Below are positions 2,909 through 61,014 of a DNA stretch of 64,000 nucleotides, one piece after another. Under the pieces are notes generated by a model. The model was not told the origin of the DNA, did no database searches, and worked only from the letters and a program-made list of their open reading frames with translations. The stretch's first letter is position 1, and every line of letters begins with the position of its first letter. The DNA comes from Pseudomonas sp. P8_241 (lineage in GTDB: Bacteria; Pseudomonadota; Gammaproteobacteria; Pseudomonadales; Pseudomonadaceae): NCBI RefSeq assembly GCF_034008315.1, contig NZ_CP125377.1, positions 2,802,001 to 2,866,000 of the forward strand. Reading direction: 5' to 3'. The position numbers were made by a program, and so were the translations under genes.

Positions 2909-2939
2909 GGTTGAATGCTCTTTTTGGAGGAGAAAGGGA

Positions 2940-4328: not shown

Positions 4329-4420
4329 CTGGTGATGACCTCATGGCATGCGCTGTTTTTATTGTTGAACCCGACCCGTGGGGGCAAGTTGCTGCCCCCG
4401 GTGGTGCCTTGGCAAAACGT

Positions 4421-5413: not shown

Positions 5414-5485
5414 GCAAGGGGCTCCATCGCCGCTGACGGATCGCGGCGAATTTTTTTGTTTTTGTTCTGGCGATCACGCTGTATT

Positions 5486-6553: not shown

Positions 6554-6635
6554 TGTGAGTCTCCCGACGGTGAACGATGGGTCCACTAAATCAAAGGCCT
6601 TACAATGAGTAAAATGAATATGTACCATTCGAGGA

Positions 6636-7550
6636 ATGCACAATATTAATATCCGTACCCTGGATCTGAATCTGCTGGTGGTGTTCATCACCCTCTGGGA
6701 AACCCAGAGCGTGACCCGCGCCAGCGAACGCCTGGCGTTGAGCCAGTCCGCCGTCAGCCATGCCCTGCGTCGATTGCGCGAGCGAATGGGCGATGAATTG
6801 TTCGTACTCGGGCGCGCAGGCCTGTTGCCCACGCCACGCGCCACCGAACTGATCGGTCCGATACGCGAGGCTCTGGAGAAGATTGACCAGGCCTTGCAGG
6901 GTGACGCGTCGTTCGCGCCCGCAACGGCCCGCCGCACGTTCCGTATCGCGGCGGGCGACTTTGTCGAGTTCCTGATCCTGCCCAGGCTGCTGCAACACAT
7001 TTCCATCGCGGCGCCGGGCGTTGTCATTGAAATCGTGCCCTTGCCGGAGCCTGCGGCGTTGCCATTGATGCTGGAAAGCGGGGCGATTGATCTGGTGGTC
7101 AATACCCCGATGGCATTGGGGGCAGGCCTGCGCTTTGAGCAATTGGCGACCATTCAGTTGCTCACGCTGATCTGGCAGCGCGAGCGCCTGGACGCCGGGC
7201 GTTTTCCACTGGCGCTGTACCTGGAACGGCCCCACGTCGTCATCAGCATGCATGATCGCGGCGGCAACATCATCGACCGCACACTGGCCGCGAAGTCCTT
7301 GAGCCGACGCATTGGCGCGGTCGTGCAAAATTTCATGGCGATGCCGGTCATCGCCTCGCAAACCGGCTACATTTGTAACTTGCCGAGCCCTATTGCGCGC
7401 ACGTTCGCCGACATGTTCAGCCTCAGTTGTCACGCCCCGCCGCTTGAGTTTCCCGAGCCCGAGTTGATTGCCTGTTGGCACACGCGATTCGATGCCGATG
7501 AAGGTCTGCAATGGTTACGTGTGCAGATAAGGGATAGTGCGGTCAGCTGA
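6636..7550 (+). CDS. LysR-family regulator of the monooxygenase locus
   Basis: 304 residues with the LysR N-terminal winged helix-turn-helix (SVTRASERLALSQSAVSHALRRLRERM, residues about 25-51) and a periplasmic-binding-like effector domain. It is divergent from the LLM monooxygenase gene across only 82 bases, the classic arrangement for a LysR activator of the adjacent operon. The ATG at 6636 is the only in-frame start near the conserved RTLDLNLLVVF segment. The GAGG at 6631-6634 is almost touching it, so translation may be leaderless-like or inefficient. The effector is unknown. Confidence 0.88.
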   Translation: MHNINIRTLDLNLLVVFITLWETQSVTRASERLALSQSAVSHALRRLRERMGDELFVLGRAGLLPTPRATELIGPIREALEKIDQALQGDASFAPATARRTFRIAAGDFVEFLILPRLLQHISIAAPGVVIEIVPLPEPAALPLMLESGAIDLVVNTPMALGAGLRFEQLATIQLLTLIWQRERLDAGRFPLALYLERPHVVISMHDRGGNIIDRTLAAKSLSRRIGAVVQNFMAMPVIASQTGYICNLPSPIARTFADMFSLSCHAPPLEFPEPELIACWHTRFDADEGLQWLRVQIRDSAVS

Positions 7551-7592
7551 GTTCACTCATCATCCGCATCACGATTTGCGACGGAGTTACTC

Positions 7593-9314
7593 ATGGATCA
7601 GCAAGGCAGCCATCCGCACGAACACACTCCCGGGTTTCAACGCGGGAGTAGGGTGCGTGACCTGTTGATACCGGAGTGGCTGAGCAACTATCGGCCCGAC
7701 TGGTTCAGGGGGGACATCATCGCCGGACTCACCGCCGCGGCGGTGGTGATTCCCAAGGCACTGGCCTATGCCACCATCGCCGGTCTGCCGGTGCAGGTCG
7801 GGCTGTACACGGCATTGGTGCCGATGGTGATTTATGCGCTGCTCGGCAGTTCGCGCCCGCTCAGCGTCAGCACCACCACCACCCTGGCCATCCTGGCCGG
7901 TTCGGCACTCGGACAGGTCAGCCCCGACGGCGATGCGGCGACCTTGCTCGCGGCGTCCGCCACGCTGGCGCTGATGGTGGGGGCGATCCTGATTGTCGCT
8001 GGGATACTGCGGCTGGGCTTTGTCGCCAACTTCATTTCTGAACCGGTGCTGGTGGGATTCAAGGCTGGCATTGGTGTGGTCATCGTGCTCGATCAGATGC
8101 CCAAACTGCTGGGTACGCACATCGACAAAGGCGGGTTCCTGCATAACGTTGTGGCGACTTTTCAAAGCCTCGGACACGCCTCGCTGCCGACCGTGGTGGT
8201 TGGCGTGTCCATGGTGCTGCTGCTGATCGCCATGAAGCGTTTTACCCCGCGCTTGCCGGCACCGCTGATTGCCGTGGGGATCGGCATTCTCGCGATGAGT
8301 CTGTTGGACCTTGAGCGATTCGGCGTCTCGTCCGTTGGCACAGTGCCGATTGGCCTGCCGGCGCTGACGATGCCCATCTGGTCGATGGCCGAAGCGTTGT
8401 GGCCTTCGGCTTTGGGTATCGCGCTGATGAGTTTTACCGAAACCATTGCCGCAGGACGCGCCTTCGCCCGCAATGACGAGCCCACCCCGCAGCCGAACCG
8501 CGAACTGGTTGCCACCGGTGTCGCCAACATCGGCGGAGCCTTTCTCGGGGCCATGGTCGCCGGGGGCGGGACTACTCAGACTGCCGTGAATCGCCTGGCC
8601 GGGGCGCGTTCGCAGCTGGCCGCGCTGGTCACTGCGGGGTTGTCGCTGGGCACTTGCCTGCTGCTGGCACCGTTCATTGGCCTGATGCCCAACGCCACGC
8701 TCGCCGCGGTGGTGATCGTCTATTCGGTGGGTCTGATCGAACCGGCAGAGTTTCGCGAGATCCTGTCGGTGCGGCGCACCGAGTTTGTCTGGGCCTTGGT
8801 GGCAATGCTGGGGGTGATGTTGCTGGGCACGTTGCAAGGCATCGTCGTGGCGATCGTTGTCTCGCTGGTAGCGCTGGCCTATCAGGTGTCCGATCCTCCT
8901 GTGCATCGACTGGGTCGCAAACCCGGTACCAACGTCTATCGTCCGCAGTCCGCAGAGAATGCCGCAGACGAGCAGTTTGACGGGTTGCTGTTATTGCGCC
9001 CGGAAGGTCGCGTGTTCTTCGCCAATGCCGAACGCATCGGCGACAAAATGCGCCCGCTGATCAATGACGCCAACCCCGAGGTGGTGATTCTCGACCTGCG
9101 CAGCGTGTTCGACCTCGAATACACCGCCTTGAAGATGCTCACCGTGGCGGAGCAGCGAATGCGCGAAAAAGGCGTTTCGCTGTGGATGGTGGGCATGAGC
9201 CCGACGGTTTGGGACATGGTCGTCAAGGCTCCGTTGGGTCGCACGCTGGGCGAGGGGCATATGTTCTTGAACCTTGAGCAGGCAGTCGATCATTACCAGC
9301 GCAGTCGACAGTGA
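7593..9314 (+). CDS. SulP-family anion transporter with STAS domain
   Basis: 573 residues. The first 420 contain 10-12 membrane segments with the SulP signature region (AGLTAAAVVIPKALAYATIAGLPVQ, about residues 40-64). The last 120 form a cytoplasmic STAS domain (FDGLLLLRPEGRVFFANAER ... VVILDLRSVFDLEYTALKML). SulP proteins exchange or symport sulfate, bicarbonate, dicarboxylates or chloride, and the substrate cannot be fixed from sequence. A CGGAGT ribosome site precedes the ATG. The stop codon is directly followed by the PPK2 region, so the two genes are probably cotranscribed. Confidence 0.9.
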   Translation: MDQQGSHPHEHTPGFQRGSRVRDLLIPEWLSNYRPDWFRGDIIAGLTAAAVVIPKALAYATIAGLPVQVGLYTALVPMVIYALLGSSRPLSVSTTTTLAILAGSALGQVSPDGDAATLLAASATLALMVGAILIVAGILRLGFVANFISEPVLVGFKAGIGVVIVLDQMPKLLGTHIDKGGFLHNVVATFQSLGHASLPTVVVGVSMVLLLIAMKRFTPRLPAPLIAVGIGILAMSLLDLERFGVSSVGTVPIGLPALTMPIWSMAEALWPSALGIALMSFTETIAAGRAFARNDEPTPQPNRELVATGVANIGGAFLGAMVAGGGTTQTAVNRLAGARSQLAALVTAGLSLGTCLLLAPFIGLMPNATLAAVVIVYSVGLIEPAEFREILSVRRTEFVWALVAMLGVMLLGTLQGIVVAIVVSLVALAYQVSDPPVHRLGRKPGTNVYRPQSAENAADEQFDGLLLLRPEGRVFFANAERIGDKMRPLINDANPEVVILDLRSVFDLEYTALKMLTVAEQRMREKGVSLWMVGMSPTVWDMVVKAPLGRTLGEGHMFLNLEQAVDHYQRSRQ

Positions 9315-9368
9315 ATGCTGTCGGACGCTTTGCGAACGTTATTTCACGAAATGAACGAGGTATCGGCG

Positions 9369-10187
9369 ATGGCGAAGAAGAAGGCTGCAGCGAAGAGCAA
9401 GCCTGTTGAAAGTGACAAGCTCAAGACCAAGGACTATCTCGAGGAACTGGCCCGGCTGCATGTCGAGCTGGTCAAGCTGCAAGAGTGGGTCAAGCACAAG
9501 GGCCTGAAGGTTTGCATTCTTTTCGAAGGGCGTGACGGGGCAGGCAAGGGCGGTACGATCAAGGCCATCACCGAACGCGTCAGCCCGCGGGTATTCAGGG
9601 TGCTGGCATTACCGGCACCCACCGAGCGGGAAAAAAGCCAGATGTATCTGCAACGCTATCTGCCGCACCTGCCGGCAGCCGGTGAAGTGGTGATCTTCGA
9701 CCGCAGCTGGTACAACCGTGCGGGCGTGGAACGGGTCATGGGTTTTTGCACTGAAGAGCAGGTCGATACCTTCCTCAAAGTGGCGCCTCGTGTCGAACAG
9801 GCCCTGGTCGAGTCGGGGATCATCCTGATCAAATACTGGCTTGAAGTGAGTGAAGAGGAACAGACTCGACGGCTCAAGGGGCGCATCACCGACGGACGAA
9901 AAATCTGGAAGCTGTCGCCAATGGACCTCAAGTCCTACAACCGCTGGTACGACTATTCCCGCGCCCGGGACGACATGTTCGCAGCCACCGACACCGAGTT
10001 CGCCCCCTGGCGTGTTGCCAATTCGAACGACAAGCGCCGGGCCCGGCTCAATATCATCAGTGATCTGCTCGCCAGCATTCCCTATGAGGACGTTCCTCGG
10101 GCGAAAGTGAAGCTGCCAAAACGCCAGGGGCCGGGTAACTATCGGGATCCCAACTATCCGTTCAAGTTCATTACGGAAAAGTACTGA
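9369..10187 (+). CDS. ppk2: Polyphosphate kinase 2
   Basis: A PPK2-family kinase of 272 residues, which transfers phosphate between polyphosphate and nucleoside diphosphates. Key parts are the Walker A loop FEGRDGAGKGG (about residues 50-60), the Walker B/active-site segment FDRSWYNRAGVERVMGF, and the lid-arginine region EEEQTRRLKGRITDGRKIWK. The frame is open from 9315, immediately after the SulP stop. The ATG at 9369 has a GAGG site eight bases upstream, and the Lys/Ala-rich start that follows is usual for the family. A perfect 12-bp inverted repeat follows the stop. Confidence 0.92.
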   Translation: MAKKKAAAKSKPVESDKLKTKDYLEELARLHVELVKLQEWVKHKGLKVCILFEGRDGAGKGGTIKAITERVSPRVFRVLALPAPTEREKSQMYLQRYLPHLPAAGEVVIFDRSWYNRAGVERVMGFCTEEQVDTFLKVAPRVEQALVESGIILIKYWLEVSEEEQTRRLKGRITDGRKIWKLSPMDLKSYNRWYDYSRARDDMFAATDTEFAPWRVANSNDKRRARLNIISDLLASIPYEDVPRAKVKLPKRQGPGNYRDPNYPFKFITEKY

Positions 10188-10200
10188 CCCGTAAAAATGA

Positions 10201-10226
10201 CAGGGGCCAGGCAAGCCTGGCCCCTG
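10201..10226. terminator. Bidirectional terminator between ppk2 and decarboxylase
   Basis: A perfect inverted repeat with 12-base arms (CAGGGGCCAGGC and its complement) separated by two bases, placed between two convergent genes. On the minus strand an A/T-rich stretch (TTTTTA) follows it. Confidence 0.8.
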
Positions 10227-10236
10227 CATCAGCGCA

Positions 10237-12420
10237 TCAGGCCTTGATCACATAGCCGTAAGCCCGAGTGCGGCCACCTTCGTTCTTCAAATACACGCCT
10301 TGCAGCTCCGGCGTGAAACCCGGCAAGGCGTTGATGCCTTCTTCCAGTGCCAGGAAATACTTCAGCACCGCGCCACCCCAGATTTCGCCAGGCACCACGC
10401 ACAGCACGCCGGGCGGATAGGGCAGTGCGCCTTCGGCGGCGATCCGGCCGTCTGCATCGGCCAGCGCCACCAGTTCGACGTTGCCACGGATGTACTCGTT
10501 CTGCGCTTGCTGCGGGTTCATGGCTTTTTTCGGGAAGTGTTCCTTGCGGAACATCGCCTTCTGCAGATGCTGGACGTCGCGCTCGCGGTAGAGGTCGTGC
10601 ATTTCCTGGCAGAGCTGGCGGATGGTGTAGTTGCGGTAGCGCTCCTCGTTCGCCGCGTAGATCGTTGGCAACACCCGGCTCATCGGCGCGTCATCGCTGA
10701 TGAAACGCTCAAAACGAGCGATCTGCGCGGCGAGGTGGGTCATTTTCGCCCAGTCTTCGGCCGGGGTGAGCAGGAACAGAATCGAGTTCAGGTCGCATTT
10801 TTCCGGCACGATGCCGTTCTCGCGCAGGAAGTTGGCGAGGATGCCCGCATGGATGCCGAAGTCGGTGTAGCTGCCATCGACCGGGTCGATCCCCGGTGTG
10901 GTGAACAGCAGCTTGCACGGGTCGATGAAGTATTGCTTCTCGGCGTATCCGCCAAAGGCATGCCAGCGATCCTTCGGATGGAATTCGAAGAAACGCAGGT
11001 CGTTGGCGATCTCATCCGTCGGATAGTCTTCCCAGGCGCGGCCTTCAATGGTATCGGGCACAAATGGGCGCACCATGGTGCAGGCTTCCAGAATCAGTTT
11101 GCGGGCATCGATGCCGAACTTCACGCAGTCTTCCCACAGGCGCAGGCCACTGCGTCCGGCGTGGATACGCGCGTTGACGTCCAGCGAGGCGAACAACGGG
11201 TAGAACGGGCTGGTCGAGGCCTGGGCCATGAAGGAGTTGTTCAGCCGATGATGGTTGCAGTAGCGGTCCTGGCCCTTGATGTGCCGGTCTTTCTTGTGCA
11301 CCTGGGACGCCTGGGAGAAACCGGCTTGTTGTTTGTGCACCGATTGGGTGACGAAGATGCCGGGGTCGTTTTCATTCAGCTCCAGCAGCAGGGGCGAGCA
11401 GTCTTTCATCATCGGGATGAACTGTTCGTAACCGACCCATGCCGAGTCGAACAGGATGTAGTCGCACAATTTGCCGATGCGGTCGACGACCTGCCGGGCG
11501 TTGTAGATGGTGCCATCGTAAGTGCCGAGCTGAATGATCGCCAGGCGGAACGGCCGTGGCAGCTGGGCTTTATCCGGCGCGACCTCGGCAATCAGCTCAC
11601 GCAGGTAGTCTTCTTCAAAACAATGCGAGTCGATCCCGCCAATGAAACCATAGGGGTTGCGCGCCGTTTCCAGGTACACCGGCGTCGCGCCGGACTGGAT
11701 CAGCGCCCCTTGGTGATTGGACTTGTGGTTGTTGCGGTCGAACAGCACCAGATCGCCCGGGGTGAGCAGGGCGTTGGTCACCACTTTGTTGGAGGCGGAA
11801 GTGCCGTTGAGCACGAAGTAGGTCTTGTCGGCGTTGAACACTTTCGCCGCGTGTTTTTGTGCCAGCAGTGCCGGGCCCTCGTGGATCAGCAAGTCGCCGA
11901 GCTTGACGTCGGCGTTGCACATGTCGGCGCGAAACAGCGTCTCGCCAAAGAAGTCGAAAAACTGCCGGCCTGCCGGGTGCTTGCGGAAGAACTGCCCACC
12001 CTGGTGACCTGGGCAGGCGAATGTGGCGTTGGCCGATTCGGTGTACTTTTTCAGCGAGTCGAAGAAGGGCGGCAGCAGGGTTGCTTCATAGGCCCGGGCC
12101 GCGGTTTCCAGTTGGTTGCCATGGTATTCGACGTTGGCACGGGTCCTGTCGAAAATGCCATTTACCTGCAACAGTACGTCTTGCAGGTGCTTGTAGACTT
12201 GTCGGGGTTGGGTTTCCACCCCTGGGGAGGCGACCAGAAAAATCGGAATATCGAATCCGGTGCGCTGGATGGCGTCCAGGGCACCGGCCAAAACATCGGC
12301 AACAGAGACCACCGCAACCGCAACATTGGTGAAGTCGGTGTTGCCGAGCAGGACCACTTCCCGGGCATTTTTGAAACATTCCTGCGCGCCTTCGCTGGCG
12401 GCAATCTTCAGGGCTTTCAT
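10237..12420 (-). CDS. speF: Inducible-type ornithine decarboxylase (fold-type I)
   Basis: A 727-residue PLP enzyme closely resembling the enterobacterial SpeC/SpeF ornithine decarboxylases end to end: LKIAASEGAQ at the start, ATFACPGHQGGQFFRKHPAG, LNGTSASNKVV, and the PLP-lysine segment VTQSVHKQQAGFSQ. The C-terminal part includes LPYPPGVLCVVPGEIWGG. It should convert ornithine to putrescine and CO2 in the cytoplasm. The start at 12420 is chosen because AGGAGA lies eight bases upstream; the open frame extends 13 codons further. Pseudomonads usually carry a different ornithine decarboxylase of about 390 residues, so this is an additional enzyme. A lysine or arginine preference cannot be excluded, but the similarity is to the ornithine group. 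Confidence 0.88.
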   Translation of the reverse strand: MKALKIAASEGAQECFKNAREVVLLGNTDFTNVAVAVVSVADVLAGALDAIQRTGFDIPIFLVASPGVETQPRQVYKHLQDVLLQVNGIFDRTRANVEYHGNQLETAARAYEATLLPPFFDSLKKYTESANATFACPGHQGGQFFRKHPAGRQFFDFFGETLFRADMCNADVKLGDLLIHEGPALLAQKHAAKVFNADKTYFVLNGTSASNKVVTNALLTPGDLVLFDRNNHKSNHQGALIQSGATPVYLETARNPYGFIGGIDSHCFEEDYLRELIAEVAPDKAQLPRPFRLAIIQLGTYDGTIYNARQVVDRIGKLCDYILFDSAWVGYEQFIPMMKDCSPLLLELNENDPGIFVTQSVHKQQAGFSQASQVHKKDRHIKGQDRYCNHHRLNNSFMAQASTSPFYPLFASLDVNARIHAGRSGLRLWEDCVKFGIDARKLILEACTMVRPFVPDTIEGRAWEDYPTDEIANDLRFFEFHPKDRWHAFGGYAEKQYFIDPCKLLFTTPGIDPVDGSYTDFGIHAGILANFLRENGIVPEKCDLNSILFLLTPAEDWAKMTHLAAQIARFERFISDDAPMSRVLPTIYAANEERYRNYTIRQLCQEMHDLYRERDVQHLQKAMFRKEHFPKKAMNPQQAQNEYIRGNVELVALADADGRIAAEGALPYPPGVLCVVPGEIWGGAVLKYFLALEEGINALPGFTPELQGVYLKNEGGRTRAYGYVIKA

Positions 12421-51399: not shown

Positions 51400-53388
51400 A
51401 TGTCCCTGCCCAAACATCATCTGGAATTGCTCAGCCCCGCCCGTGACGTGGCCATCGCCCGTGAGGCGATCCTGCATGGCGCTGATGCGATTTACATCGG
51501 CGGCCCGAGCTTCGGTGCCCGCCACAATGCCTGCAACGAAGTCAGCGAAATCGCCGAATTGGTGGAATTCGCCCGTCGTTATCACGCGCGGGTGTTCACC
51601 ACCATCAACACTATCCTGCACGACAACGAACTGGAGCCGGCCCGCAAGCTGATCCACCAGTTGTACGATGCCGGTGTCGATGCGCTGATCGTCCAGGACC
51701 TGGGCGTGATGGAACTGGACATTCCACCCATTGAGTTGCACGCCAGCACCCAGACTGACATCCGCACCCTGGAACGGGCAAAGTTCCTCGATCAGGCCGG
51801 CTTCTCCCAGTTGGTGCTGGCCCGTGAGCTGAACCTGCAAGAGATCCGTGCGATTGCCAACGAGACCGACGCGGCCATCGAGTTCTTCATCCACGGTGCG
51901 TTGTGCGTGGCGTTTTCCGGGCAGTGCAACATTTCCCACGCCCACACCGGTCGCAGCGCCAACCGCGGCGATTGCTCCCAGGCGTGCCGTTTGCCTTACA
52001 CCCTCAAGGACGAGAAGGGCGGTGTGATCGCTTACGAAAAACACCTGCTGTCGATGAAGGACAATAACCAGAGCGCCAACATCCGCGCCCTGGTCGAAGC
52101 CGGCGTGCGCTCGTTCAAGATCGAAGGGCGCTACAAGGACATGGGCTATGTGAAAAACATCACGGCCTATTACCGCCAGCGCCTCGACGCCGTGCTCGAA
52201 GACCGCCCGGACCTGGCCCGCGCCTCCAGCGGCCGCACCGCGCATTTCTTCCTGCCCGACCCGGAAAAAACCTTCCACCGTGGCAGCACCGATTACTTCG
52301 TCACGGATCGCAAGATCGACATCGGTGCCTTCGACTCACCGACCTTCACCGGTTTGCCGGTGGGTGTGGTCGAGAAAGTCGCCAAGCGTGACATGCAGGT
52401 CGTGACGCACGAGCCGCTGTCCAACGGCGACGGTCTCAACGTGCTGGTCAAGCGCGAAGTGGTGGGTTTCCGCGCCAACATCGCCGAGCCGAAAGGTGAA
52501 TTCGAGGAGGACGGCGAGAAGCGTTATCGCTATCGCGTCGAGCCAAACGAGATGCCGGAGGGGATGTACAAACTGCGCCCCAACCATCCGCTGAATCGCA
52601 ACCTCGATCACAACTGGCAACAGGCGCTGCAAAAGACCTCAGCCGAGCGTCGCGTGGCCCTGCGTTGGGTCGCTTGCCTGCGTGAAGAGCAGCTGGAACT
52701 CACCGCGACCAGCGAAGAGGGCATCAGCGCCAGCGTCACCCTGAAAGGGCCGTTCGGTGCCGCCAACAAGCCGGAGCAGGCACTGGAGCAATTGCAGGAT
52801 CTGCTTGGTCAGTTGGGCACTACGCAGTACCACGCCATCGATATCAAGCTGGACGCGCCGCAGGCGTACTTCATTCCGAACTCGCAGCTCAAAGCCTTGC
52901 GCCGTGAAGTGATTGAAGCCTTGACCGAAGCGCGCATCGCCGCTCACCCACGCGGTGGTCGCAAGGCCGAGACCACACCGCCACCGGTGTACCCGGAATC
53001 GCACCTGTCATTCCTGGCCAACGTCTACAACCAGAAGGCCCGCGACTTCTATCATCGCCACGGTGTGAAATTGATCGACGCGGCCTACGAGGCTCACGAG
53101 GAAACCGGCGACGTCCCGGTGATGATCACCAAGCACTGCCTGCGATTCTCCTTCAACCTGTGTCCGAAACAGGCCAAGGGCGTCACTGGCGTGCGCACCA
53201 AGGTCGCGCCAATGCAATTGATTCATGGCGACGAGGTGCTGACGCTGAAGTTCGACTGCAAGCCTTGCGAAATGCACATCATCGGCAAGATGAAAGGCCA
53301 CATCCTCAACCTGCCGCAACCCGGCAGTGTGGTGGGTCACATCAGCCCTGAAGACCTGCTCAAGACCATCGCGCGCGCGCCGCATTGA
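51400..53388 (+). CDS. rlhA: U32-family 23S rRNA C2501 hydroxylase RlhA
   Basis: 662 residues, aligning along its full length with E. coli RlhA (YdcP). N-terminal TIM-barrel (LELLSPARDVAIAREAILHG; VDALIVQDLGVMELD), the U32 signature region with clustered cysteines (CVAFSGQCNISH, SANRGDCSQACRLPY), and the C-terminal Cys region (CLRFSFNLCPKQAKG, FDCKPCEMH) that probably binds an iron-sulfur cluster. RlhA uses prephenate-linked metabolism to make 5-hydroxycytidine at 23S rRNA position 2501. The length separates it from the shorter tRNA enzyme TrhP (YegQ). It is a single gene after a REP pair. Confidence 0.92.
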   Translation: MSLPKHHLELLSPARDVAIAREAILHGADAIYIGGPSFGARHNACNEVSEIAELVEFARRYHARVFTTINTILHDNELEPARKLIHQLYDAGVDALIVQDLGVMELDIPPIELHASTQTDIRTLERAKFLDQAGFSQLVLARELNLQEIRAIANETDAAIEFFIHGALCVAFSGQCNISHAHTGRSANRGDCSQACRLPYTLKDEKGGVIAYEKHLLSMKDNNQSANIRALVEAGVRSFKIEGRYKDMGYVKNITAYYRQRLDAVLEDRPDLARASSGRTAHFFLPDPEKTFHRGSTDYFVTDRKIDIGAFDSPTFTGLPVGVVEKVAKRDMQVVTHEPLSNGDGLNVLVKREVVGFRANIAEPKGEFEEDGEKRYRYRVEPNEMPEGMYKLRPNHPLNRNLDHNWQQALQKTSAERRVALRWVACLREEQLELTATSEEGISASVTLKGPFGAANKPEQALEQLQDLLGQLGTTQYHAIDIKLDAPQAYFIPNSQLKALRREVIEALTEARIAAHPRGGRKAETTPPPVYPESHLSFLANVYNQKARDFYHRHGVKLIDAAYEAHEETGDVPVMITKHCLRFSFNLCPKQAKGVTGVRTKVAPMQLIHGDEVLTLKFDCKPCEMHIIGKMKGHILNLPQPGSVVGHISPEDLLKTIARAPH

Positions 53389-53431
53389 TTGACTGGTTGT
53401 GAGCGCGGTCGTGGTGCCGCGTTCACAGTGG

Positions 53432-54016
53432 TCAAATCCTGCAACAGCTGAAGTAAATGATTGCCACGGTGACGGCAATGCCGAATGACGCCAGTGCTTT
53501 TACCGTTAAATGGGGTAAAGGTACGAATTCGGTGATTTGTGGCGAGTAGGATGAGGAAGCCTGCGAGGGTTTTCTGCGGTGGTGCCTGATGGACTTATAG
53601 CTGTACTGCAAGCTGATCAGCAGTGAGAGAGCAATCAGTCCAAGGGCAAACCAGCGGGCGCTTGTCGGTTTTTGTGCAGGTGTAACCATTTCGTCTTCGC
53701 AAGCGGCGCTGTCGATTTCAATCACCGAAATTGGCTGATAAGTCGATGAGTACCGTTTCGCATCGTTCTGGATTGATGCGAGTTGCTCCAGATCCAGCGC
53801 TTGATACTTCCACAGCGTTGACGAGCCCTCGCGGCAATAAGTGAAAGAGACCGGATTTTTGGCGCCAATGATGCACGCGTCATTGATACCCATTTTTTTC
53901 AGCGTTTCATCCGCTGACCGGGTGAAGTCCAGGTCGAAGACAGGCATGACGCCGGTTGCAGAAGCCGCGGACGAAACCAACAGGATCGCCAAGGCGCAGA
54001 ATGCTGAAGTGTTCAC
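53432..54016 (-). CDS. Unknown exported membrane protein
   Basis: 194 residues: signal peptide (FCALAILLVSSAASA, cleavage near residue 20), and a periplasmic part of about 100 residues with two or three cysteines (NDACIIGAKN, FTYCREG, SAACEDEM) that may form a disulfide. Two membrane segments follow at about 124-142 and 172-191. I recognise no family. Its A/T content is somewhat higher than that of the neighbours. It is co-oriented with the next small unknown gene, but 114 bases separate them. Confidence 0.6.
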   Translation of the reverse strand: MNTSAFCALAILLVSSAASATGVMPVFDLDFTRSADETLKKMGINDACIIGAKNPVSFTYCREGSSTLWKYQALDLEQLASIQNDAKRYSSTYQPISVIEIDSAACEDEMVTPAQKPTSARWFALGLIALSLLISLQYSYKSIRHHRRKPSQASSSYSPQITEFVPLPHLTVKALASFGIAVTVAIIYFSCCRI

Positions 54017-55314: not shown

Positions 55315-56331
55315 GTGTTGGTAGAGCGACGTCAGTTCAGCGGTGCGATGAAGGGCAAGAATCTTCGCTACCTCAAAGAGCATGAAGACCCGTCGGTCCC
55401 GCAGGCGCTGGCAGGTTTTCTGTTGCTGGAGCATTTTTCGTTGCCGGCGTTCACCCAGGCACTCGATACGGTCGTCACGGCCAACCTCTTGCGGCCCGAG
55501 TTGTTCTTGACCAAGACCTTCGGTTTGACCGAAGGCGAAGTGATCAGCGATCTGGGGTTGGTGATTCGACCCGATGCCCGTCTCAGTCATGCCGAGATTC
55601 AGCAGCTGGATCTACTGGTGGTCTGTGGCGGTTACCGAACGGCGCTCAAGGCCGACGACGCGCTGATCGGTTTGTTGCACGACGCGGCCGAGCAGGGCAT
55701 TACGCTGGCGGGGATCTGGAATGGCGCGTGGTTTCTTGGGCGAGCCGGGGTTCTGGATGGCTATCGTTGTGCGATTCATCCGGAGCATCGCCCTGCGCTG
55801 GCGGAAATCGCCAAGCTGAGCCAAGTCACCAGTGAAGCGTATGTGGTGGATCGCGATCGACTGACCGCGTCCAGTCCGAATGGCACTTTTTACATGGCGC
55901 TGGAATGGATCAGGGGGTTGCACGACAAGGCGCTCACGGACGCCATCGAAGACATTCTGGCCTTTGAAGCGTCGCGTTACCGGCGCATCAAGCCCACGCT
56001 GAGCGTGTCTGTCAGTGGCCCGCTGCGGGAGGTAGTCAACCTGATGGACGCCAACCTGGAGGAGCCGCTGGAAATGGATGCGCTCTGTCTTTACGCGGGA
56101 CGGTCTCGTCGGCAGATCGAGCGCCTGTTCAAGGAGCAGCTGGGCACCACGCCCCAGCGCTATTACATGGATTTGCGGATCACCGAGGCGCGGCGCTTGC
56201 TGCAGCACACGACGTTGACCATCGTTGAAGTCTCGGTGGCCTGCGGGTTCGTCTCGCCCAGCCACTTCAGCAAATGCTACAGCGCTTACTTCGGCTATCG
56301 GCCGTCCAGGGAAGTCAGGCTGGTGAAGTAA
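55315..56331 (+). CDS. GlxA-family AraC regulator with DJ-1/PfpI-like domain
   Basis: 338 residues. A DJ-1/PfpI-like domain spans about residues 30-190 (QLDLLVVCGGYRTALKADD, GITLAGIWNGAWFLGRAGVLDGYR). Then comes an AraC DNA-binding domain (EMDALCLYAGRSRRQIERLFKEQLGTTPQRYY ... VSVACGFVSPSHFSKCY). The elbow after AGI is WNGAWF, without the catalytic Cys of true proteases, as expected for a sensing domain. Relatives include the arginine (ArgR) and glycine-betaine (GbdR) regulators of Pseudomonas. Start GTG 55315 has GAGG five bases upstream; ATG 55348 is an alternative. Confidence 0.83.
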   Translation: MLVERRQFSGAMKGKNLRYLKEHEDPSVPQALAGFLLLEHFSLPAFTQALDTVVTANLLRPELFLTKTFGLTEGEVISDLGLVIRPDARLSHAEIQQLDLLVVCGGYRTALKADDALIGLLHDAAEQGITLAGIWNGAWFLGRAGVLDGYRCAIHPEHRPALAEIAKLSQVTSEAYVVDRDRLTASSPNGTFYMALEWIRGLHDKALTDAIEDILAFEASRYRRIKPTLSVSVSGPLREVVNLMDANLEEPLEMDALCLYAGRSRRQIERLFKEQLGTTPQRYYMDLRITEARRLLQHTTLTIVEVSVACGFVSPSHFSKCYSAYFGYRPSREVRLVK

Positions 56332-56334
56332 CGG

Positions 56335-56360
56335 AAAAGGGCAGTGTGACTGCCCCTTTC
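56335..56360. terminator. Bidirectional terminator
   Basis: AAAAGGGCAGT-GTG-ACTGCCCCTTTC, an inverted repeat with one unpaired C and A/T-rich ends, between the convergent regulator and glutathione transferase genes. Confidence 0.75.
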
Positions 56361-56376
56361 CTCCCATCACCCTTGG

Positions 56377-57039
56377 TTAACGAAACCTTTGCGCGATTGC
56401 CTCGGCAAACGGAAACATGGAGAAGTACGGTCGCGCTTCGTCGATGACCCGCTGGCAGGACGGCCGGGTGGTCAAACGGTCGAAATACGTATTCAAATGG
56501 CGATGCTCATCGGCAAACGGCACCAGCATGCTGGCGTAGAACAGGGCCGGGCAGGCGGCGCAATCGGCCATGCTGAACACGTCCCCGGCGGCCCAGGTTG
56601 TGGACGCCAGTTGACGCTCGAGCATGCCGTACGCAGTGGTAAGGGCTGCGCGCTCCCGGGTCAGGTCGCCGTTCGCCGAGCGCAGGCGATCGAGGACTAT
56701 CTGGTTCATCGGGCCCTGGACGTGGAGGTCGAAAAAGCGATCCCAAAAACGAACCTGCAGCGCGGACTCCCAATCGCCGGGTATCAGGCGGTGTTGGCCG
56801 GCTTGAAAGTGGTCCAGATACTCAATGATGATGCTCGACTCCGCCACGTCGCGCTGACGGGTGTGATCGTGGACCACCGGAAATTTGACCAGCGGCCACA
56901 GGGCTTGAAGCTCCGCCCGGTCGGCATCGTTGCCCAGGTCGATGATCCTTTTTTCAAATTCGACCTGGTGTTCGTAGAGTGCGATCAACACTTTGTGACA
57001 GTACGACGAGAGCGGGTGGAAGTAGAGAGTCAGCGGCAT
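56377..57039 (-). CDS. Glutathione S-transferase family protein
   Basis: 220 residues. N-terminal thioredoxin-like domain (MPLTLYFHPLSSYCHKVLIALYE; then KFPVVHDHTRQRDVAESSIIIEYLD with the Glu-Ser glutathione contact) and an all-helical C-terminal domain (STTWAAGDVFSMADCAACPALFY, the usual ADC motif). It conjugates or reduces substrates with glutathione in the cytoplasm. The ATG at 57039 has GAGGGAC upstream; 24 additional upstream codons are open but unsupported. It is divergent from the riboswitch-controlled operon, and its promoter shares that intergenic region. Confidence 0.87.
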   Translation of the reverse strand: MPLTLYFHPLSSYCHKVLIALYEHQVEFEKRIIDLGNDADRAELQALWPLVKFPVVHDHTRQRDVAESSIIIEYLDHFQAGQHRLIPGDWESALQVRFWDRFFDLHVQGPMNQIVLDRLRSANGDLTRERAALTTAYGMLERQLASTTWAAGDVFSMADCAACPALFYASMLVPFADEHRHLNTYFDRLTTRPSCQRVIDEARPYFSMFPFAEAIAQRFR

Positions 57040-57219
57040 CTTTCGGTCCCTCGGCCAAGTGCAAACCCGTGCATTATCCGCCTGCACTCGCCGATGTGCG
57101 AGACGCTCCATCGTGGTGCTGTCTGGAGGTGAAAGGGTTGGGAGTTGCTTGATCTGAAAATAATTAAAATATCTTTCAAATCAATGCGATCGTAACTCGT
57201 TCGATGATCAGTCCGAACG

Positions 57220-57235
57220 TGGCACGCACATTGCT
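57220..57235 (+). promoter_or_regulatory. Sigma-54 (-24/-12) promoter
   Basis: TGGCAC-N5-TTGCT matches the RpoN consensus at every defined position, with GG and GC ten bases apart. It predicts a start near 57246, giving a leader of about 105 bases that contains the whole riboswitch. Sigma-54 control points to nitrogen-limitation regulation through NtrC or another enhancer-binding protein. Confidence 0.85.
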
Positions 57236-57246
57236 CCATTTCTTTG

Positions 57247-57262
57247 GCACCGGTTCTGGTGC
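57247..57262 (+). promoter_or_regulatory. Inverted repeat at the predicted transcript start
   Basis: GCACC-N6-GGTGC lies just after the sigma-54 element and seven bases before riboswitch hairpin P1. It resembles an NtrC half-site pair with one extra central base, or it may form a 5' hairpin in the leader. Confidence 0.4.
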
Positions 57263-57268
57263 GAATGA

Positions 57269-57319
57269 TCCGGGACGACCCGGAGGCCTAGCGGCTCTGC
57301 GATATCTGGACGACCAGGT
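57269..57319 (+). promoter_or_regulatory. Guanidine-II (mini-ykkC) riboswitch
   Basis: Two hairpins with identical ACGA loops closed by G-C pairs. P1 is TCCGGG-ACGA-CCCGGA (57269-57284). P2 is ATCTGG-ACGA-CCAGGT (57304-57319). Both have six-base-pair stems and a 19-base linker. Two GG-ACGR-CC hairpins in tandem just before a Shine-Dalgarno sequence are the defining pattern of the guanidine-II class, where guanidine binds both loops and drives their pairing. The AGGAGG site is at 57339-57344 and the start codon at 57351, so control would be at translation initiation. Confidence 0.9.
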
Positions 57320-57350
57320 GACATTTTGACTAATCATCAGGAGGTTACTT

Positions 57351-58400
57351 ATGGCGCCCACGCCTCGAACTACCCCTCATTCAGCGTTCGAACACCTGCC
57401 CCTGGTGGACATTGGCGGACTGTTTTCCGACTGCGCCGCCGATCGCATCCAAGCCGCCGCAGCGTTGGGGAACGCCGCGCAGCAGGCGGGTTTCCTCTAT
57501 GTGACCGGGCACGGTATCGATCCGCAGATCATCAATCGTCTCAAGCAACGGACCGTTGAATACTTCGCCCAGCCGGTCGAGCGCAAGATGCAGGATTACA
57601 TCGGGCTTTCGAGCAATCACTGCGGGTATGTCCCGGAGGGCGAGGAGCAGTTTGTCGAGGGCAGCATCGATCACAAGGAGGCCTTCGACGTTGGCTTCGA
57701 CTATGTCCTGCCAGAGGGGCAGCGCCCCATGCTGGGGGCCAATCGCTGGCCAGTGTTGCCGGGTTTCAAGCAGGACATCAAGGCTTACTACGACGCGGTG
57801 TTCAGCCTCAGCCTTGCGCTGTTTCGGGGCTTTGCGCTGGCCTTGGGGTTACCGGAAAACGCCATCAGCCAATGGGTCAATCATCCGCCCAGCCAACTTC
57901 GGTTGATTCACTATCCGTATTCAAAGGATGCACCGCAGGATCGTCCGGGTATTGGCGCGCACACCGACTACGAATGCTTCACCATCCTGCTGCCGACTGC
58001 GCCGGGGCTTGAAGTGTTGAACGGAGCAGGGCAGTGGATCGACGTGCCGCTGGTCGAAGGTGCATTTGTGATCAATATCGGCGACATGATGGAGGTGCTG
58101 AGCAATGGCACCTATGTCGCCACGGCCCATCGGGTGCGCAAGGTCAGTGAAGAGCGTTATTCCTTCCCGATGTTCTGCGCTTGCGACTATGACACGGTCA
58201 TCGAACCTATCGCGCAACTGCTCGAACCGGCAGCTCCGAGCCGCTATGGGCCGGTGGTTTGCGGGGAGCATCTGTACGCACAGACCCTGCAAACCTTTCG
58301 CTATCTCAAGCAACGCATGGCACGGGGCGAGCTGAGCTTGCCCAGTGGCGCCAAAGGCTTGTCGTCATTCGGCTACGCCGCCATCGGCGAGGAGGTTTGA
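57351..58400 (+). CDS. 2-oxoglutarate/Fe(II) oxygenase, isopenicillin N synthase family, guanidine-riboswitch controlled
   Basis: 349 residues. The N-terminal DIOX_N region includes LPLVDIGGLF and GFLYVTGHGID. The iron site is H204, D206 (GAHTDYECF) and H260 (ATAHRVRKV), with R269-x-S271 binding 2-oxoglutarate. It is a complete, active-looking oxygenase. The NHCGYVPEGEEQF and DHKEAFDVGF segments belong to the subgroup with variable amine or amino-acid substrates. It is the first gene behind a sigma-54 promoter and a guanidine-II riboswitch, with an ideal AGGAGG. The substrate is probably a guanidino compound (for example N-alkylguanidine dealkylation or hydroxylation), inferred only from the riboswitch and the binding protein gene. 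Confidence 0.9.
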   Translation: MAPTPRTTPHSAFEHLPLVDIGGLFSDCAADRIQAAAALGNAAQQAGFLYVTGHGIDPQIINRLKQRTVEYFAQPVERKMQDYIGLSSNHCGYVPEGEEQFVEGSIDHKEAFDVGFDYVLPEGQRPMLGANRWPVLPGFKQDIKAYYDAVFSLSLALFRGFALALGLPENAISQWVNHPPSQLRLIHYPYSKDAPQDRPGIGAHTDYECFTILLPTAPGLEVLNGAGQWIDVPLVEGAFVINIGDMMEVLSNGTYVATAHRVRKVSEERYSFPMFCACDYDTVIEPIAQLLEPAAPSRYGPVVCGEHLYAQTLQTFRYLKQRMARGELSLPSGAKGLSSFGYAAIGEEV

Positions 58401-58401
58401 C

Positions 58402-59343
58402 ATGCACCTTCACCAGCTTGTCGAGCAATTCGCACAACAACCACCCCAGGGTGTTCCCGACTGGATGCTCGGTTTCTACAAGCGCCGAGCGATCAGTTTT
58501 GCCGACGGCCTGACCGATGTGCAGACCCACGTGTGCTGGTTCCAGAGCCGCAATTTCACCATCGATCTGCGCCTGCCGCTTGAGCATCAACAAGTGCCGG
58601 CCAAGCCCTTGTCGGGGTACAGCGCGCAAGAGCTGCAAGTGCTCGCCAATTACGAAGGCTGGGAAGCCTTGTGTTCCTGGGAAGGCGAGACCCTGAGCTG
58701 GCACACGGACACGTCCTTGCAGGTGCACAATCGCTGGCCGGAGCCTGGGCTTCTCAAGCGCATCGGTGACTGCATGATCGAGTTCTCACCCAGTGACGCC
58801 TACGTCGAAGACTGGCGCTTGCAATCATCGGCACCGGGGGCATTGATCGGCTTGCGACTGCTGCACGAAAAGGAGCTGGGCAGTGGTCGCGTGCACCACC
58901 GTGGTGGCGGGCTGATCGTGTGCGGCGATCATGCGGCGCTGGTGCTCGGGCGGGCCGAGGTGCTTGAGTGCGGCCCCCTCGATCTGCGTGAGGCGGTTGC
59001 GCGCCATGCCGACGATCTGCAATGGCTCAGTCGTGCCTTCAATTTCGAAACTTCAGTCGCCTGTGGCTCCCTCGCAGAGGGCTTCAATGTGACCCTTTCG
59101 ACCTGCGCTGCACGCATCGGCCAGCCGTTGATCTCGCTGGAAGGCTTCGAGATTCACCCTGACGGTCAGCACGTTTGCCAGTTGCTTCAGGTCGACGGCG
59201 TTGTCCGCGAGCGGTTGTTCGTGATCGACACTCTGGAGCCGCAGGTCAGCTATTCATCCGCCACCGGATTCACCGACCGTGCCGCGCAATGGTACGAGCG
59301 CGAATCCCCGACATTGAGCCGCTACACCCGGCCGCTCGTTTGA
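58402..59343 (+). CDS. Unknown protein of the guanidine-riboswitch operon
   Basis: 313 residues with no family that I recognise. Start ATG 58402, one base after the oxygenase TGA, with GAGGAGG inside the oxygenase end; the two are translationally coupled. No signal peptide or membrane segment is seen, so it is cytoplasmic. Visible features include an aromatic-rich N-terminal third (LGFYKRRAISFADG, VCWFQSRNF, YEGWEALCSWEGETLSWHTD), a beta-rich middle (VHHRGGGLIVCGDHAALVLGR), and a tail ending YERESPTLSRYTR. Its coupling to an oxygenase suggests a partner enzyme or accessory factor acting on the same compound. Confidence 0.8.
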   Translation: MHLHQLVEQFAQQPPQGVPDWMLGFYKRRAISFADGLTDVQTHVCWFQSRNFTIDLRLPLEHQQVPAKPLSGYSAQELQVLANYEGWEALCSWEGETLSWHTDTSLQVHNRWPEPGLLKRIGDCMIEFSPSDAYVEDWRLQSSAPGALIGLRLLHEKELGSGRVHHRGGGLIVCGDHAALVLGRAEVLECGPLDLREAVARHADDLQWLSRAFNFETSVACGSLAEGFNVTLSTCAARIGQPLISLEGFEIHPDGQHVCQLLQVDGVVRERLFVIDTLEPQVSYSSATGFTDRAAQWYERESPTLSRYTRPLV

Positions 59344-59382
59344 ACCCAATGCGTCACCCCATTCATAACCCGTGAGGTTTCC

Positions 59383-60462
59383 ATGAAGGCATTCTCGTGC
59401 GTGTTCTACCGTGTTGCAGTCGTGTTGCTGGCGTTGTCCTGTGTGGCTTTCGGTGCTTCTGCGGCCGAGAAAAAACAGTCGTTCAAGGTGGCCTGGTCGA
59501 TCTATTCCGGGTGGATGCCGTGGGGCTACGCCAGCGAACACGGGATCATCGACAAATGGGCGAAAAAGTACGGCATCCAGATTGAACTGGTGCAACTCAA
59601 CGACTACATCGAGTCGATCAACCAGTACGCCGCGGGTGCATTCGATGCCTGCGGTATGACCAACATGGATGCCTTGACCATCCCGAGCGCCAATGGCGTG
59701 GACACCACGGGGCTGATTCTGGGCGATTACTCCAATGGCAACGACGCCATCGTCCTGAAGAACGGCAAGACCTTTGCCGACATCAAGGGCCAGCAGGTCA
59801 ATCTGGTGGAGTTGTCGGTGTCCGACTACCTGATGTCCCGGGCCCTGGACATTCATGGCCTGAGCCAGCGCGATATCAAGATCATGAACACCTCCGATGC
59901 TGATGCCGTGGCTTCGTTCTCCACGTCCGGGGTGACAGCGGCAGCATTGTGGAATCCGCAATTGAGCATGGTGATGAAGCAGTCACCGACGGCGGTTCAG
60001 GTCTTCACCTCCAAAGAAATACCGGGGGAGATCATTGACATGATGGCGGTGAACACCGAGACGCTGGCGGCCAATCCGGAACTGGGCAAGGCGTTGGTCG
60101 GTGCGTGGTTCGAGACCTTGCAATTGATGAGCGGCGACAGCAGGCAGGCCATCGCCGCACGTACTTCGATGGCCGAGCGCTCGGGTACCGACCTTAAAGG
60201 CTACGAGGAACAACTCACGCAAACCATGTTGTTCTATACGCCGGGCACCGCGTTCGAGTTCGCCAACTCCGACGCCATCCGCCATACCATGGACAAGGTG
60301 CGCACCTTCTCCTTTGCCAAAGGCTTGCTGGGCCAGGCCGCCACCAGCGCCGATGCGGTGGGCATGCAGTTTGCCGACGGCTCGACCCTTGGTGATAAGA
60401 ACAACATCAAGCTGCGCTTCGATAGCCGCTTCGTGAACATGGCCGTGGCCAACCAGCTCTGA
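59383..60462 (+). CDS. Periplasmic binding protein of the urea/guanidine-carboxylase-associated ABC family
   Basis: 359 residues: signal peptide ending ASA near residue 28, and then an NMT1/SsuA-type binding fold (FKVAWSIYSGWMPWGYASEHG, YIESINQYAAGAFDACGMTNM, LGDYSNGNDAIVLKNGK, SKEIPGEIIDMMAVNTETL). This matches the binding-protein family encoded next to urea carboxylase genes, many of which are now known to be guanidine carboxylases. Ligand recognition of guanidine or a derivative therefore fits the riboswitch upstream. No permease or ATPase genes are adjacent, so the protein is an orphan that must use a transporter encoded elsewhere or act as a sensor. The gene is 39 bases after the unknown gene. 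Confidence 0.87.
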   Translation: MKAFSCVFYRVAVVLLALSCVAFGASAAEKKQSFKVAWSIYSGWMPWGYASEHGIIDKWAKKYGIQIELVQLNDYIESINQYAAGAFDACGMTNMDALTIPSANGVDTTGLILGDYSNGNDAIVLKNGKTFADIKGQQVNLVELSVSDYLMSRALDIHGLSQRDIKIMNTSDADAVASFSTSGVTAAALWNPQLSMVMKQSPTAVQVFTSKEIPGEIIDMMAVNTETLAANPELGKALVGAWFETLQLMSGDSRQAIAARTSMAERSGTDLKGYEEQLTQTMLFYTPGTAFEFANSDAIRHTMDKVRTFSFAKGLLGQAATSADAVGMQFADGSTLGDKNNIKLRFDSRFVNMAVANQL

Positions 60463-60472
60463 GCGAAGGCGA

Positions 60473-60501
60473 CCATGAGCGTTCGTCTTGAACGCCCATG
60501 G
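60473..60501 (+). terminator. Hairpin closing the riboswitch operon
   Basis: CCATG-A-GCGTTC-N5-GAACGC-C-CATGG, 11 pairs with one mismatch and a five-base loop. It starts ten bases after the binding-protein stop and lies before the convergent DoxX gene. It has no long T-tract. Confidence 0.55.
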
Positions 60502-60507
60502 CGTGTT

Positions 60508-61014
60508 TCAGCGATGCCAGAAATAACGAGTCAGCAGCGCATCGAGACTCAGTTTGCCGGGGCCGGAGAACAGCAGCGGCATAAAGGCCACGAGGTAGAT
60601 CAGTGGCAGTTTGAAGTTGCCGAAACCCTTGTTGCTGATCGCGTAGCCCTGGGCGAGTTCGCTTAAGGTGGACCAGTCGGCTGGCCAGTGCACGGCTGCG
60701 GTCGCGACAAGGGTTACGACTATCAGAATGAATGCCGAAATCCGTGTGCCGAGGCCCACCAGAATCGCCAGGGCGCAGATCAGTTCAGCCCACATCGACA
60801 ACTCCCAGTTCAACGTCGTCGACACGTGGTTGAACGGAAACGGGAAGCGCGACTGAATATCGGCGAACCAATTCTGGCCATTGAATTTTTCCAGGCCCGA
60901 CTCGAAGAATTCCCAGGCGACGAACACCCGCAAGGCCAGGGGCGCGATCCATTCGCCGACGCGGTCGAGGTTGAGGTGCAGGCCTTTGACGGCCGAGGAG
61001 ATGGCGGTGTTCAT
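60508..61014 (-). CDS. DoxX-family membrane protein
   Basis: 168 residues with four membrane segments (IAPLALRVFVAWEFF, LSMWAELICALAILVGLG, ISAFILIVVTLVATAAVHW, LPLIYLVAFMPLLFSG) and the DoxX pattern GLEKFNGQNWF. DoxX proteins are small inner-membrane proteins linked to oxidative-stress complexes in some bacteria; here the function is unknown. It is convergent with the riboswitch operon and therefore not part of it. Confidence 0.85.
   Translation of the reverse strand: MNTAISSAVKGLHLNLDRVGEWIAPLALRVFVAWEFFESGLEKFNGQNWFADIQSRFPFPFNHVSTTLNWELSMWAELICALAILVGLGTRISAFILIVVTLVATAAVHWPADWSTLSELAQGYAISNKGFGNFKLPLIYLVAFMPLLFSGPGKLSLDALLTRYFWHR

What the first reader, a model, noticed from the sequence alone, without database searches (positions are those of the whole stretch)
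57220..60501. Guanidine-sensing, sigma-54-driven operon with a 2OG/Fe(II) oxygenase, an unknown protein and an orphan binding protein
Seen in sequence: a consensus -24/-12 promoter, then two tandem hairpins with ACGA loops, then AGGAGG and three tightly packed genes closed by a hairpin. Established: tandem ACGR-loop hairpins define guanidine-II riboswitches; the binding-protein family is encoded beside urea/guanidine carboxylases; the oxygenase has an intact H-D-H iron site. Inference: under nitrogen limitation and when guanidine is present, the cell makes an oxygenase and partner that release or consume guanidine from a guanidino compound (for example by N-dealkylation or hydroxylation). I know of no described guanidine-riboswitch pathway built around an IPNS-type oxygenase.
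Basis: partly seen in the sequence, partly recalled or inferred. Interest (0 to 1): 0.92.

Follow-up and report, generated by a model that had tools for sequence, protein, structure and literature searches.

The report
Methylguanidine-demethylating operon with guanidine riboswitch
This Pseudomonas stretch very likely lets the cell strip the methyl group off methylguanidine and feed the resulting guanidine to a nitrogen-salvage pathway, a chemistry first published in 2025 for a salt-loving bacterium, but here with its own switch, its own promoter and a different kind of lyase.

Summary
In detail: at 57220-60462 a perfect sigma-54 promoter, tandem ACGA hairpins, a ribosome site and three co-directional genes lie in order. 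Stock Rfam scores the switch below its cut-off (23.4 of 32 bits), but a model trained without this window or its 12 nearest loci finds it at 44 bits, E 4e-8. Tandem hairpins recur before the same oxygenase gene in 58 of 70 loci (0.08 expected).

Sinn et al. 2025 (PMC12508155) showed that MgdH hydroxylates methylguanidine and MgdL splits the product into guanidine and formaldehyde. Gene 1 is an MgdH (54% identity). Gene 2 is a distant MgdL relative (27%, catalytic Asp and Arg kept) from a longer subfamily that is MgdH's usual partner. Gene 3 is a guanidine-type receptor; in four related genomes it is the only one found.

New: a free-standing mgdHL-receptor operon 2.2 Mb from the carboxylase operon, sigma-54 plus riboswitch control, and the alternative lyase. 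No activity was measured; function rests on homology, conservation and co-occurrence.

The parts
57220..57235 (+). sigma-54 (-24/-12) promoter
   Evidence: Exact consensus, only one in the window; 29 of 35 leaders carry a 10- or 11-of-11 match, 0.43 expected.
57267..57321 (+). guanidine-II-type riboswitch aptamer: hairpin P1 (57269-57284), spacer hairpin (57285-57296), hairpin P2 (57303-57320), both loops ACGA
57317..57349 (+). proposed P3: GGUGAC (57317-57322, shared with the foot of P2) pairs with GUUACU (57344-57349), enclosing the ribosome site AGGAGG (57339-57344)
   Evidence: Predicted fold; own partners pair better than swapped ones in 33 leaders, 0 of 1000 swaps reach the observed mean.
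57351..58400 (+). gene 1, mgdH-type methylguanidine hydroxylase (2OG/Fe(II) oxygenase, 349 aa)
   Evidence: 54% identity over 335 residues to V. boliviensis MgdH; same clade; Pfam.
58402..59343 (+). gene 2, long-subfamily MgdL-type lyase (313 aa; D55 and R57 match MgdL D49 and R51)
   Evidence: 27% over 214 residues, E 3e-7; profile comparison probability 97.6; shared invariant residues; model pLDDT 93.8.
59383..60462 (+). gene 3, TIGR03427 periplasmic binding protein of the lyase-linked clade
   Evidence: 505.5 bits against cut-off 333.9; tree; whole-genome search.

Best explanation
The operon is a free-standing methylguanidine-demethylation module. A sigma-54 promoter transcribes it (inferred: when nitrogen is short). 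In the leader, guanidine or methylguanidine makes hairpins P1 and P2 dock (proposed for the class); a firm P2 keeps its 3' foot from pairing with the sequence just after the ribosome site (P3), so translation starts. Gene 1 (MgdH) hydroxylates the methyl group of methylguanidine with 2-oxoglutarate, O2 and iron; [quoted passage not shown] gene 3 is an extra periplasmic receptor, most likely for methylguanidine, working with the permease and ATPase of the guanidine carboxylase operon elsewhere in the genome. The guanidine is then consumed by that carboxylase pathway. Shown here: anatomy, homology, conservation, co-occurrence. From the literature: the chemistry in V. boliviensis and the ligands of guanidine-II switches. 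Inferred: activity, substrate, transport partner, nitrogen control.
For: MgdH: 54% identity over 335 residues to the tested enzyme, clade of 81 rows including it. MgdL: homology and conserved D/R/E/W set. Lyase directly beside mgdH in 69 of 73 loci. Carboxylase: full operon in this genome with guanidine-I and -II elements; in 44 of 46 genomes whose fetched stretch lacked it; in 12 of 12 lyase-bearing Pseudomonas against 163 of 298. Switch: 58 of 70, held-out model. P3. Promoter. Receptor: one clade of 34 rows with the window's and the sole TIGR03427 protein found in four genomes. V. boliviensis Gd-II binds methylguanidine as well as guanidine (PMC12508155).
Against: Stock Rfam score is below cut-off. 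Gene 2 is only 27% identical to the tested lyase and groups away from it. 10 of 70 loci lack the hairpin pair. G784 and G792 show no carboxylase beyond biotin-carboxylase paralogues. Six of 35 leaders lack a good sigma-54 site and the window has no close NtrC-like site. Some leaders form only 3-4 P3 pairs (L083, L084, L103, L104, L117). No biochemical test.
Confidence: 0.8

Rival explanations
1. Same kind of operon, but the pair acts mainly on another N-alkyl guanidine (dimethylguanidine, a longer N-alkylguanidine or another methylated guanidino compound), the long lyase subfamily being tuned to a different hemiaminal.
For: V. boliviensis MgdH also takes N,N-dimethylguanidine (PMC12508155); the lyase belongs to another subfamily than the tested one.
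Against: MgdH-clade residues are strongly conserved between gene 1 and V. boliviensis MgdH (104 columns at 97% or more in 81 rows; among the polar ones listed V. boliviensis differs at two); the lyase active-site set is invariant in both subfamilies; V. boliviensis Gd-II did not respond to dimethylguanidine (PMC12508155).
Confidence: 0.12
2. Gene 1 is an ethylene-forming-type or homoarginine-hydroxylase-type enzyme that releases guanidine from arginine or homoarginine.
For: The best PDB chain by sequence is labelled 2-oxoglutarate-dependent ethylene/succinate-forming enzyme (9ovh, E 1.6e-51); such enzymes release guanidine (PMC12508155 introduction).
Against: Far stronger match to MgdH (361 bits against 178.7 bits); MgdH consumed O2 only with methylguanidine and dimethylguanidine among the compounds tested (PMC12508155; the full list is in a supplement not seen); a dedicated hemiaminal lyase is encoded beside it.
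Confidence: 0.05
3. The operon serves mainly detoxification of methylguanidine rather than nitrogen supply.
For: The genome has a guanidine-II element ahead of a small (104 aa) membrane-exporter-like gene (exporter identity recalled); the window has no close NtrC-like site.
Against: A periplasmic receptor, that is uptake, belongs to the operon here and in 33 other rows; the carboxylase co-occurs; NtrC-like sites with at most 2 mismatches in 16 of 35 leaders, 2.7 expected.
Confidence: 0.08

Closest known systems
mgdH/mgdL in the Vreelandella boliviensis guanidine carboxylase operon (Sinn et al. 2025, PMC12508155)
   Same: Orthologous-looking oxygenase (54%), a lyase-superfamily partner with the same catalytic Asp and Arg, guanidine-II control, guanidine carboxylase in the genome.
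   Different: Here a separate operon 2.2 Mb from the carboxylase operon, its own guanidine-II switch directly before mgdH, a sigma-54 promoter, its own receptor gene, and a lyase of a longer, separate subfamily.
Guanidine-II (mini-ykkC) riboswitch, Rfam RF01068
   Same: Two G+C-rich hairpins with ACGA loops before the ribosome site.
   Different: Below Rfam's gathering score; the spacer holds a small hairpin. The spacer length (18 nt between the hairpins as I counted them) lies in the 7-40 nt range given for the class (PMC7544219, passage).
TIGR03427 putative urea ABC transporter substrate-binding protein
   Same: Well over the curated cut-off; 58% identical to the one in this genome's carboxylase operon.
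   Different: Belongs to a clade encoded downstream of the lyase gene, not beside permease genes.

Membership tests
Guanidine-II riboswitch (RF01068) | two hairpins with ACGR tetraloops in tandem before a gene | tested here: met
   57269-57320, loops ACGA; 58 of 70 relatives
Guanidine-II riboswitch (RF01068) | score over Rfam's gathering cut-off | tested here: not met
   23.4 against 32 bits. So it is filed as guanidine-II-type, a family variant; a model from relatives reaches 44 bits
Guanidine-II riboswitch (RF01068) | guanidine-dependent structure change | not testable with these tools
   needs in-line probing
MgdH methylguanidine hydroxylase | close sequence relation to the tested enzyme | tested here: met
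   54% over 335 residues; one clade of 81 rows against the second V. boliviensis oxygenase (midpoint root, long-branch warning for the V. boliviensis row)
MgdH methylguanidine hydroxylase | 2-His-1-carboxylate iron site | tested here: met
   H204, D206, H260 conserved in at least 97% of 81 rows; assignment of the roles recalled
MgdH methylguanidine hydroxylase | hydroxylates methylguanidine | not testable with these tools
   needs an assay
MgdL N-(hydroxymethyl)guanidine lyase | catalytic Asp and Arg | tested here: met
   D55 and R57 align with D49 and R51; invariant in 42 and 29 rows
MgdL N-(hydroxymethyl)guanidine lyase | same subfamily as (orthologous to) the tested V. boliviensis protein | tested here: not met
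   27% identity; tree puts it apart, 100/98 and 100/99; AU p 0.037 against one clade (group named after the first tree was seen). Filed as MgdL-type, a different subfamily
MgdL N-(hydroxymethyl)guanidine lyase | speeds decay of N-(hydroxymethyl)guanidine | not testable with these tools
   needs an assay
TIGR03427 binding protein | score over curated cut-off | tested here: met
   505.5 against 333.9 bits
sigma-54 promoter | GG-N10-GC with TGGCAC-N5-TTGC consensus | tested here: met
   57220-57235; conserved
sigma-54 promoter | loss of expression without rpoN | not testable with these tools
   needs a mutant

The most novel reading that the evidence does not exclude
The Asp-x-Arg beta-barrel proteins form a wider superfamily of hemiaminal lyases that finish N-dealkylations begun by different oxygenases: the long subfamily is the usual partner of MgdH in proteobacteria, and occurs with it in Myxococcota and Acidobacteria; the published Halomonas-type MgdL is a recruit from a short subfamily; other short members, beside a second 2OG oxygenase with an ABC transporter (V. 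boliviensis, L162) or near a luciferase-type monooxygenase with ABC-transporter genes (Pseudomonas, L049), act on still unknown N-alkyl compounds.
Probability: 0.35. Interest if true: 0.75.

Novelty: new variant of a known kind. Interest (0 to 1): 0.5.

Why it matters
It carries a pathway described in 2025 from halophiles to many Pseudomonas and other proteobacteria, in a form (promoter plus riboswitch plus dedicated receptor) testable in ordinary laboratory pseudomonads. It gives a likely function to a lyase family without a Pfam or NCBIfam hit here (569 proteins at E 0.001 or better; 16 members scanned against Pfam), explains an 'orphan' binding protein, and suggests that methylguanidine is a nitrogen source well outside salt lakes. 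The competition of P2 and P3 is a concrete, mutable model of how this guanidine-II variant opens its ribosome site.

Tried and rejected
Arginine-splitting, ethylene-forming-type oxygenase: considered because the closest PDB chain by sequence carries that label; put low on the much stronger match to MgdH and the gene partner. Intrinsic terminator after gene 3: not found. PDB fold searches of both lyase models gave no match at E 0.001 or better, only weak lipocalin-like and fatty-acid-binding-protein-like barrels among other hits; no function taken from them. PDB sequence searches: nothing useful for the lyase (best E 0.52) and nothing for the binding protein at E 1e-5. The fourth guanidine-II hit in the genome (L004, 20.4 bits) was not followed. 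MAFFT alignment of whole leaders (A5) misaligned the P3 arm, so P3 was tested by swapping partners; that control does not keep relatedness, and 2 of 35 leaders (L095, L110) were dropped for lack of a clear ribosome site. P1/P2 pair counts are biased, as the leaders were chosen by having hairpins; one of its five measures (pairs with a change on both sides, 4) was reached in 27 of 500 shuffles. The count not chosen that way is 58 of 70; its loci include near-identical species, of which 34 leaders (window included, of 61) are non-redundant. L123 runs off its contig and was kept as a miss. R1 recognises this family of leaders, not guanidine-II at large: it gave 18.9 and 16.9 bits for the carboxylase-operon switches of L035 and L161 and no hit to the one in L036. 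Of 43 named loci without a carboxylase hit in the fetched stretch, 38 were sent, three more (L062, L063, L067) are covered by handles of the same genomes as far as contig length and position show, and two (L090, L101) were not searched. About 53-62% identical carboxylases could include urea carboxylases; I did not separate the two beyond V. boliviensis gca being 58%.

Literature: PMC12508155 parts 1-4 of 7 (abstract, introduction, results, discussion, part of the methods) plus passages; PMC12186494, PMC7544219, PMC5486947 and PMC13296017 passages only; others search listings only. Searches for this operon type in print listed no paper that by title or abstract start describes a Pseudomonas mgdHL operon or sigma-54 with a guanidine riboswitch; open-licence PubMed Central papers only, no supplements. 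PMC13296017 passages describe guanidine-I riboswitches at the carboxylase-type locus of Ectopseudomonas guguanensis and do not mention mgdH.
Full report
WHAT IS THERE. The window lies in a single 6.39-Mb contig (G000); the nearest named relative at this locus is Pseudomonas sp. Irchel s3f7 (lyase 96%). At 57220-57235 stands the only exact TGGCACNNNNNTTGCW in 64 kb. Then come hairpin P1 (57269-57284), a small spacer hairpin, hairpin P2 (57303-57320), AGGAGG (57339-57344) and three co-directional genes: 57351-58400, 58402-59343 (1 nt later) and 59383-60462 (39 nt later). Two GGACGACC copies at such spacing occur once and in no shuffle. The scan of 57100-60700 found no sigma-70-like promoter (1.1 expected) and no U-tract terminator on the + strand, although a strong hairpin follows gene 3.

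IS IT A GUANIDINE-II RIBOSWITCH. Rfam's model gives 23.4 bits, under its cut-off of 32. I therefore looked at relatives fetched by protein, not by RNA. In the first 12 Pseudomonas loci, window included, both ACGA hairpins stand directly before the oxygenase gene in 12 of 12. Of 73 named loci fetched through the lyase, 70 had an oxygenase hit to look upstream of; 58 have tandem ACGR hairpins with a gap of at most 60 nt, against 0.08 expected from first-order shuffles, and two more (L073, L078) with a longer gap. A covariance model built from 23 leaders that exclude the window and its 12 nearest loci finds the window at 44 bits (E 4.1e-8 in 319 kb, calibration rough) and 12 of 12 held-out loci; the carboxylase-operon switches score only 17-19 bits. 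P1 and P2 keep 96.8% of pair cells, with 16 double-sided changes against 2.8 in shuffles (biased, since leaders were chosen by their hairpins).

HOW THE SWITCH MAY WORK. In the predicted fold the sequence after the ribosome site pairs back with the foot of P2, enclosing AGGAGG. Over 33 leaders this pairing (P3) is stronger with the leader's own partner than with partners swapped between leaders (mean score 12.05 against 9.43, sd 0.38; 0 of 1000 swaps reach it), and two Acidobacteria leaders have eight pairs there with quite different letters; some leaders have only three or four. P3 takes bases from the foot of P2, so docking of P1 and P2 on ligand, the model for the class (PMC5486947, PMC7544219, passages), would free the ribosome site. 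Swapping does not preserve relatedness: this is support, not proof.

PROMOTER. In 35 leaders (34 non-redundant ones plus L056) the 110 nt before P1 hold a sigma-54 site scoring at least 10 of 11 in 29 and 11 of 11 in 22, against 0.43 and 0.02 expected; four have none and two score 8. NtrC-like sites with at most two mismatches are enriched over the set (16 of 35, 2.7 expected), but the window's best has three, so NtrC control of this copy is inference.

WHAT THE GENES ARE. Sinn et al. (Nat Commun 2025, PMC12508155) showed in Vreelandella boliviensis that a 2OG/Fe(II) dioxygenase (MgdH) hydroxylates methylguanidine to N-(hydroxymethyl)guanidine, and that a second protein (MgdL) splits this into guanidine and formaldehyde, Asp49 and Arg51 being needed. 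I recovered both reference proteins: P0134 (named V. boliviensis) starts and ends as the published primers require and has D49 and R51; its 100% match lies in genome G686, whose locus L161 has the published gene order with guanidine-I and -II elements, and the MgdH there also fits the primer ends. Gene 1 is 54% identical to that MgdH over 335 residues, lies with it in a clade of 81 rows against the second V. boliviensis oxygenase (the V. boliviensis row carries a long-branch warning), and has H204, D206 and H260 conserved. Gene 2 matches MgdL at 27% over 214 residues (E 3e-7 for that single comparison) and by profile comparison at probability 97.6, E 2.7e-12. W46, Q48, D55, R57, W100, E127, Y134, E136 and W138, invariant in 42 long-subfamily rows, match positions invariant in 29 rows of the V. 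boliviensis family. The two AlphaFold models (pLDDT 93.8 and 87.6) have the same order of main elements, gene 2 having extra C-terminal strands and a helix. Gene 3 is a TIGR03427 binding protein.

CONTEXT. The lyase is directly beside mgdH in 69 of 73 loci. The other four: L081 (no mgdH hit), L086 (a switch at 27.7 bits directly before the lyase, no mgdH hit), L090 (contig begins inside the lyase) and L103 (only a partial oxygenase hit). The carboxylase is seen in the fetched stretch in 30 of 73. The window's genome has the carboxylase operon, with a guanidine-I and a guanidine-II element, 2.2 Mb away, and a guanidine-II element before a small exporter-like gene. Of 46 genomes whose fetched stretch showed no carboxylase, 44 have one by my reading of the table: 41 with a match over most of the protein, three on fragments; G784 and G792 show only biotin-carboxylase paralogues, and G780, among the 41, only a 53% match that could be a urea carboxylase. 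All 12 Pseudomonas genomes with the lyase have it, against 163 of 298 (6e-4 if genomes were independent).

THE ORPHAN RECEPTOR. Binding proteins encoded just downstream of the lyase form one clade of 34 rows, window included (SH-aLRT 98, quick tree; four pairs of rows are identical), apart from those beside permeases; one further downstream protein (L081) is unrelated to it. In four of 12 genomes searched (those of L072, L073, L075, L076; L073 is a metagenome assembly) the lyase-linked one is the only TIGR03427 protein found, and there it faces a permease-ATPase-carboxylase operon that shows none of its own. So this receptor type can serve the guanidine importer; preference for methylguanidine is inference.

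WHAT IS NEW. The published lyase does not look like the ortholog of the common one: V. boliviensis MgdL groups with short paralogues (100/98; 100/99 on shared columns), and holding it with the long lyases is mildly rejected (AU p 0.037; the grouping was named after seeing the first tree). MgdH thus seems to work with lyases of two subfamilies. The free-standing operon, its sigma-54 promoter, its own guanidine-II switch and its receptor are an arrangement I found in none of the papers listed; the chemistry is a known kind.

VERDICT.

Noticed in passing
L162 (G686, V. boliviensis) 2874-10313, minus strand; same set in L163: A second oxygenase plus short MgdL-like lyase pair beside ABC-transporter genes, a PhyH-type dioxygenase and a class II aldolase-type protein; substrate unknown.
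   Followed up: partly
L049 5121-9582 (Pseudomonas genome G137): A short MgdL-like protein (8168-8929) next to a TetR-type regulator and near a luciferase-type monooxygenase and ABC-transporter genes; no mgdH-type oxygenase hit in the stretch. Weak short relatives occur in 20 further of 298 Pseudomonas genomes.
   Followed up: partly
L086 7893-7956 (Oxalobacteraceae bacterium CAVE-383): A guanidine-II-type leader (27.7 bits) stands directly before a lyase gene with no mgdH beside it, inside a guanidine carboxylase locus.
   Followed up: no
L036 8041-8428 (G000:C1:2088376-2088428, minus strand): The same genome has a guanidine-II element over cut-off (43.8 bits) before a 104-aa membrane protein that looks like a small-multidrug-type guanidine exporter (identity recalled, not tested).
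   Followed up: no
window 55315-57111: Upstream neighbours (AraC-type regulator with a DJ-1/PfpI domain, and a GST-like gene on the minus strand) are found at this locus in few of the 12 nearest named loci (both in L055, GST also in L063), so they are probably not part of the module.
   Followed up: partly
window 53375-53449: Rfam mir-27 (an animal microRNA family) hit at 28.4 bits, below its cut-off of 48.5; surely chance.
   Followed up: no
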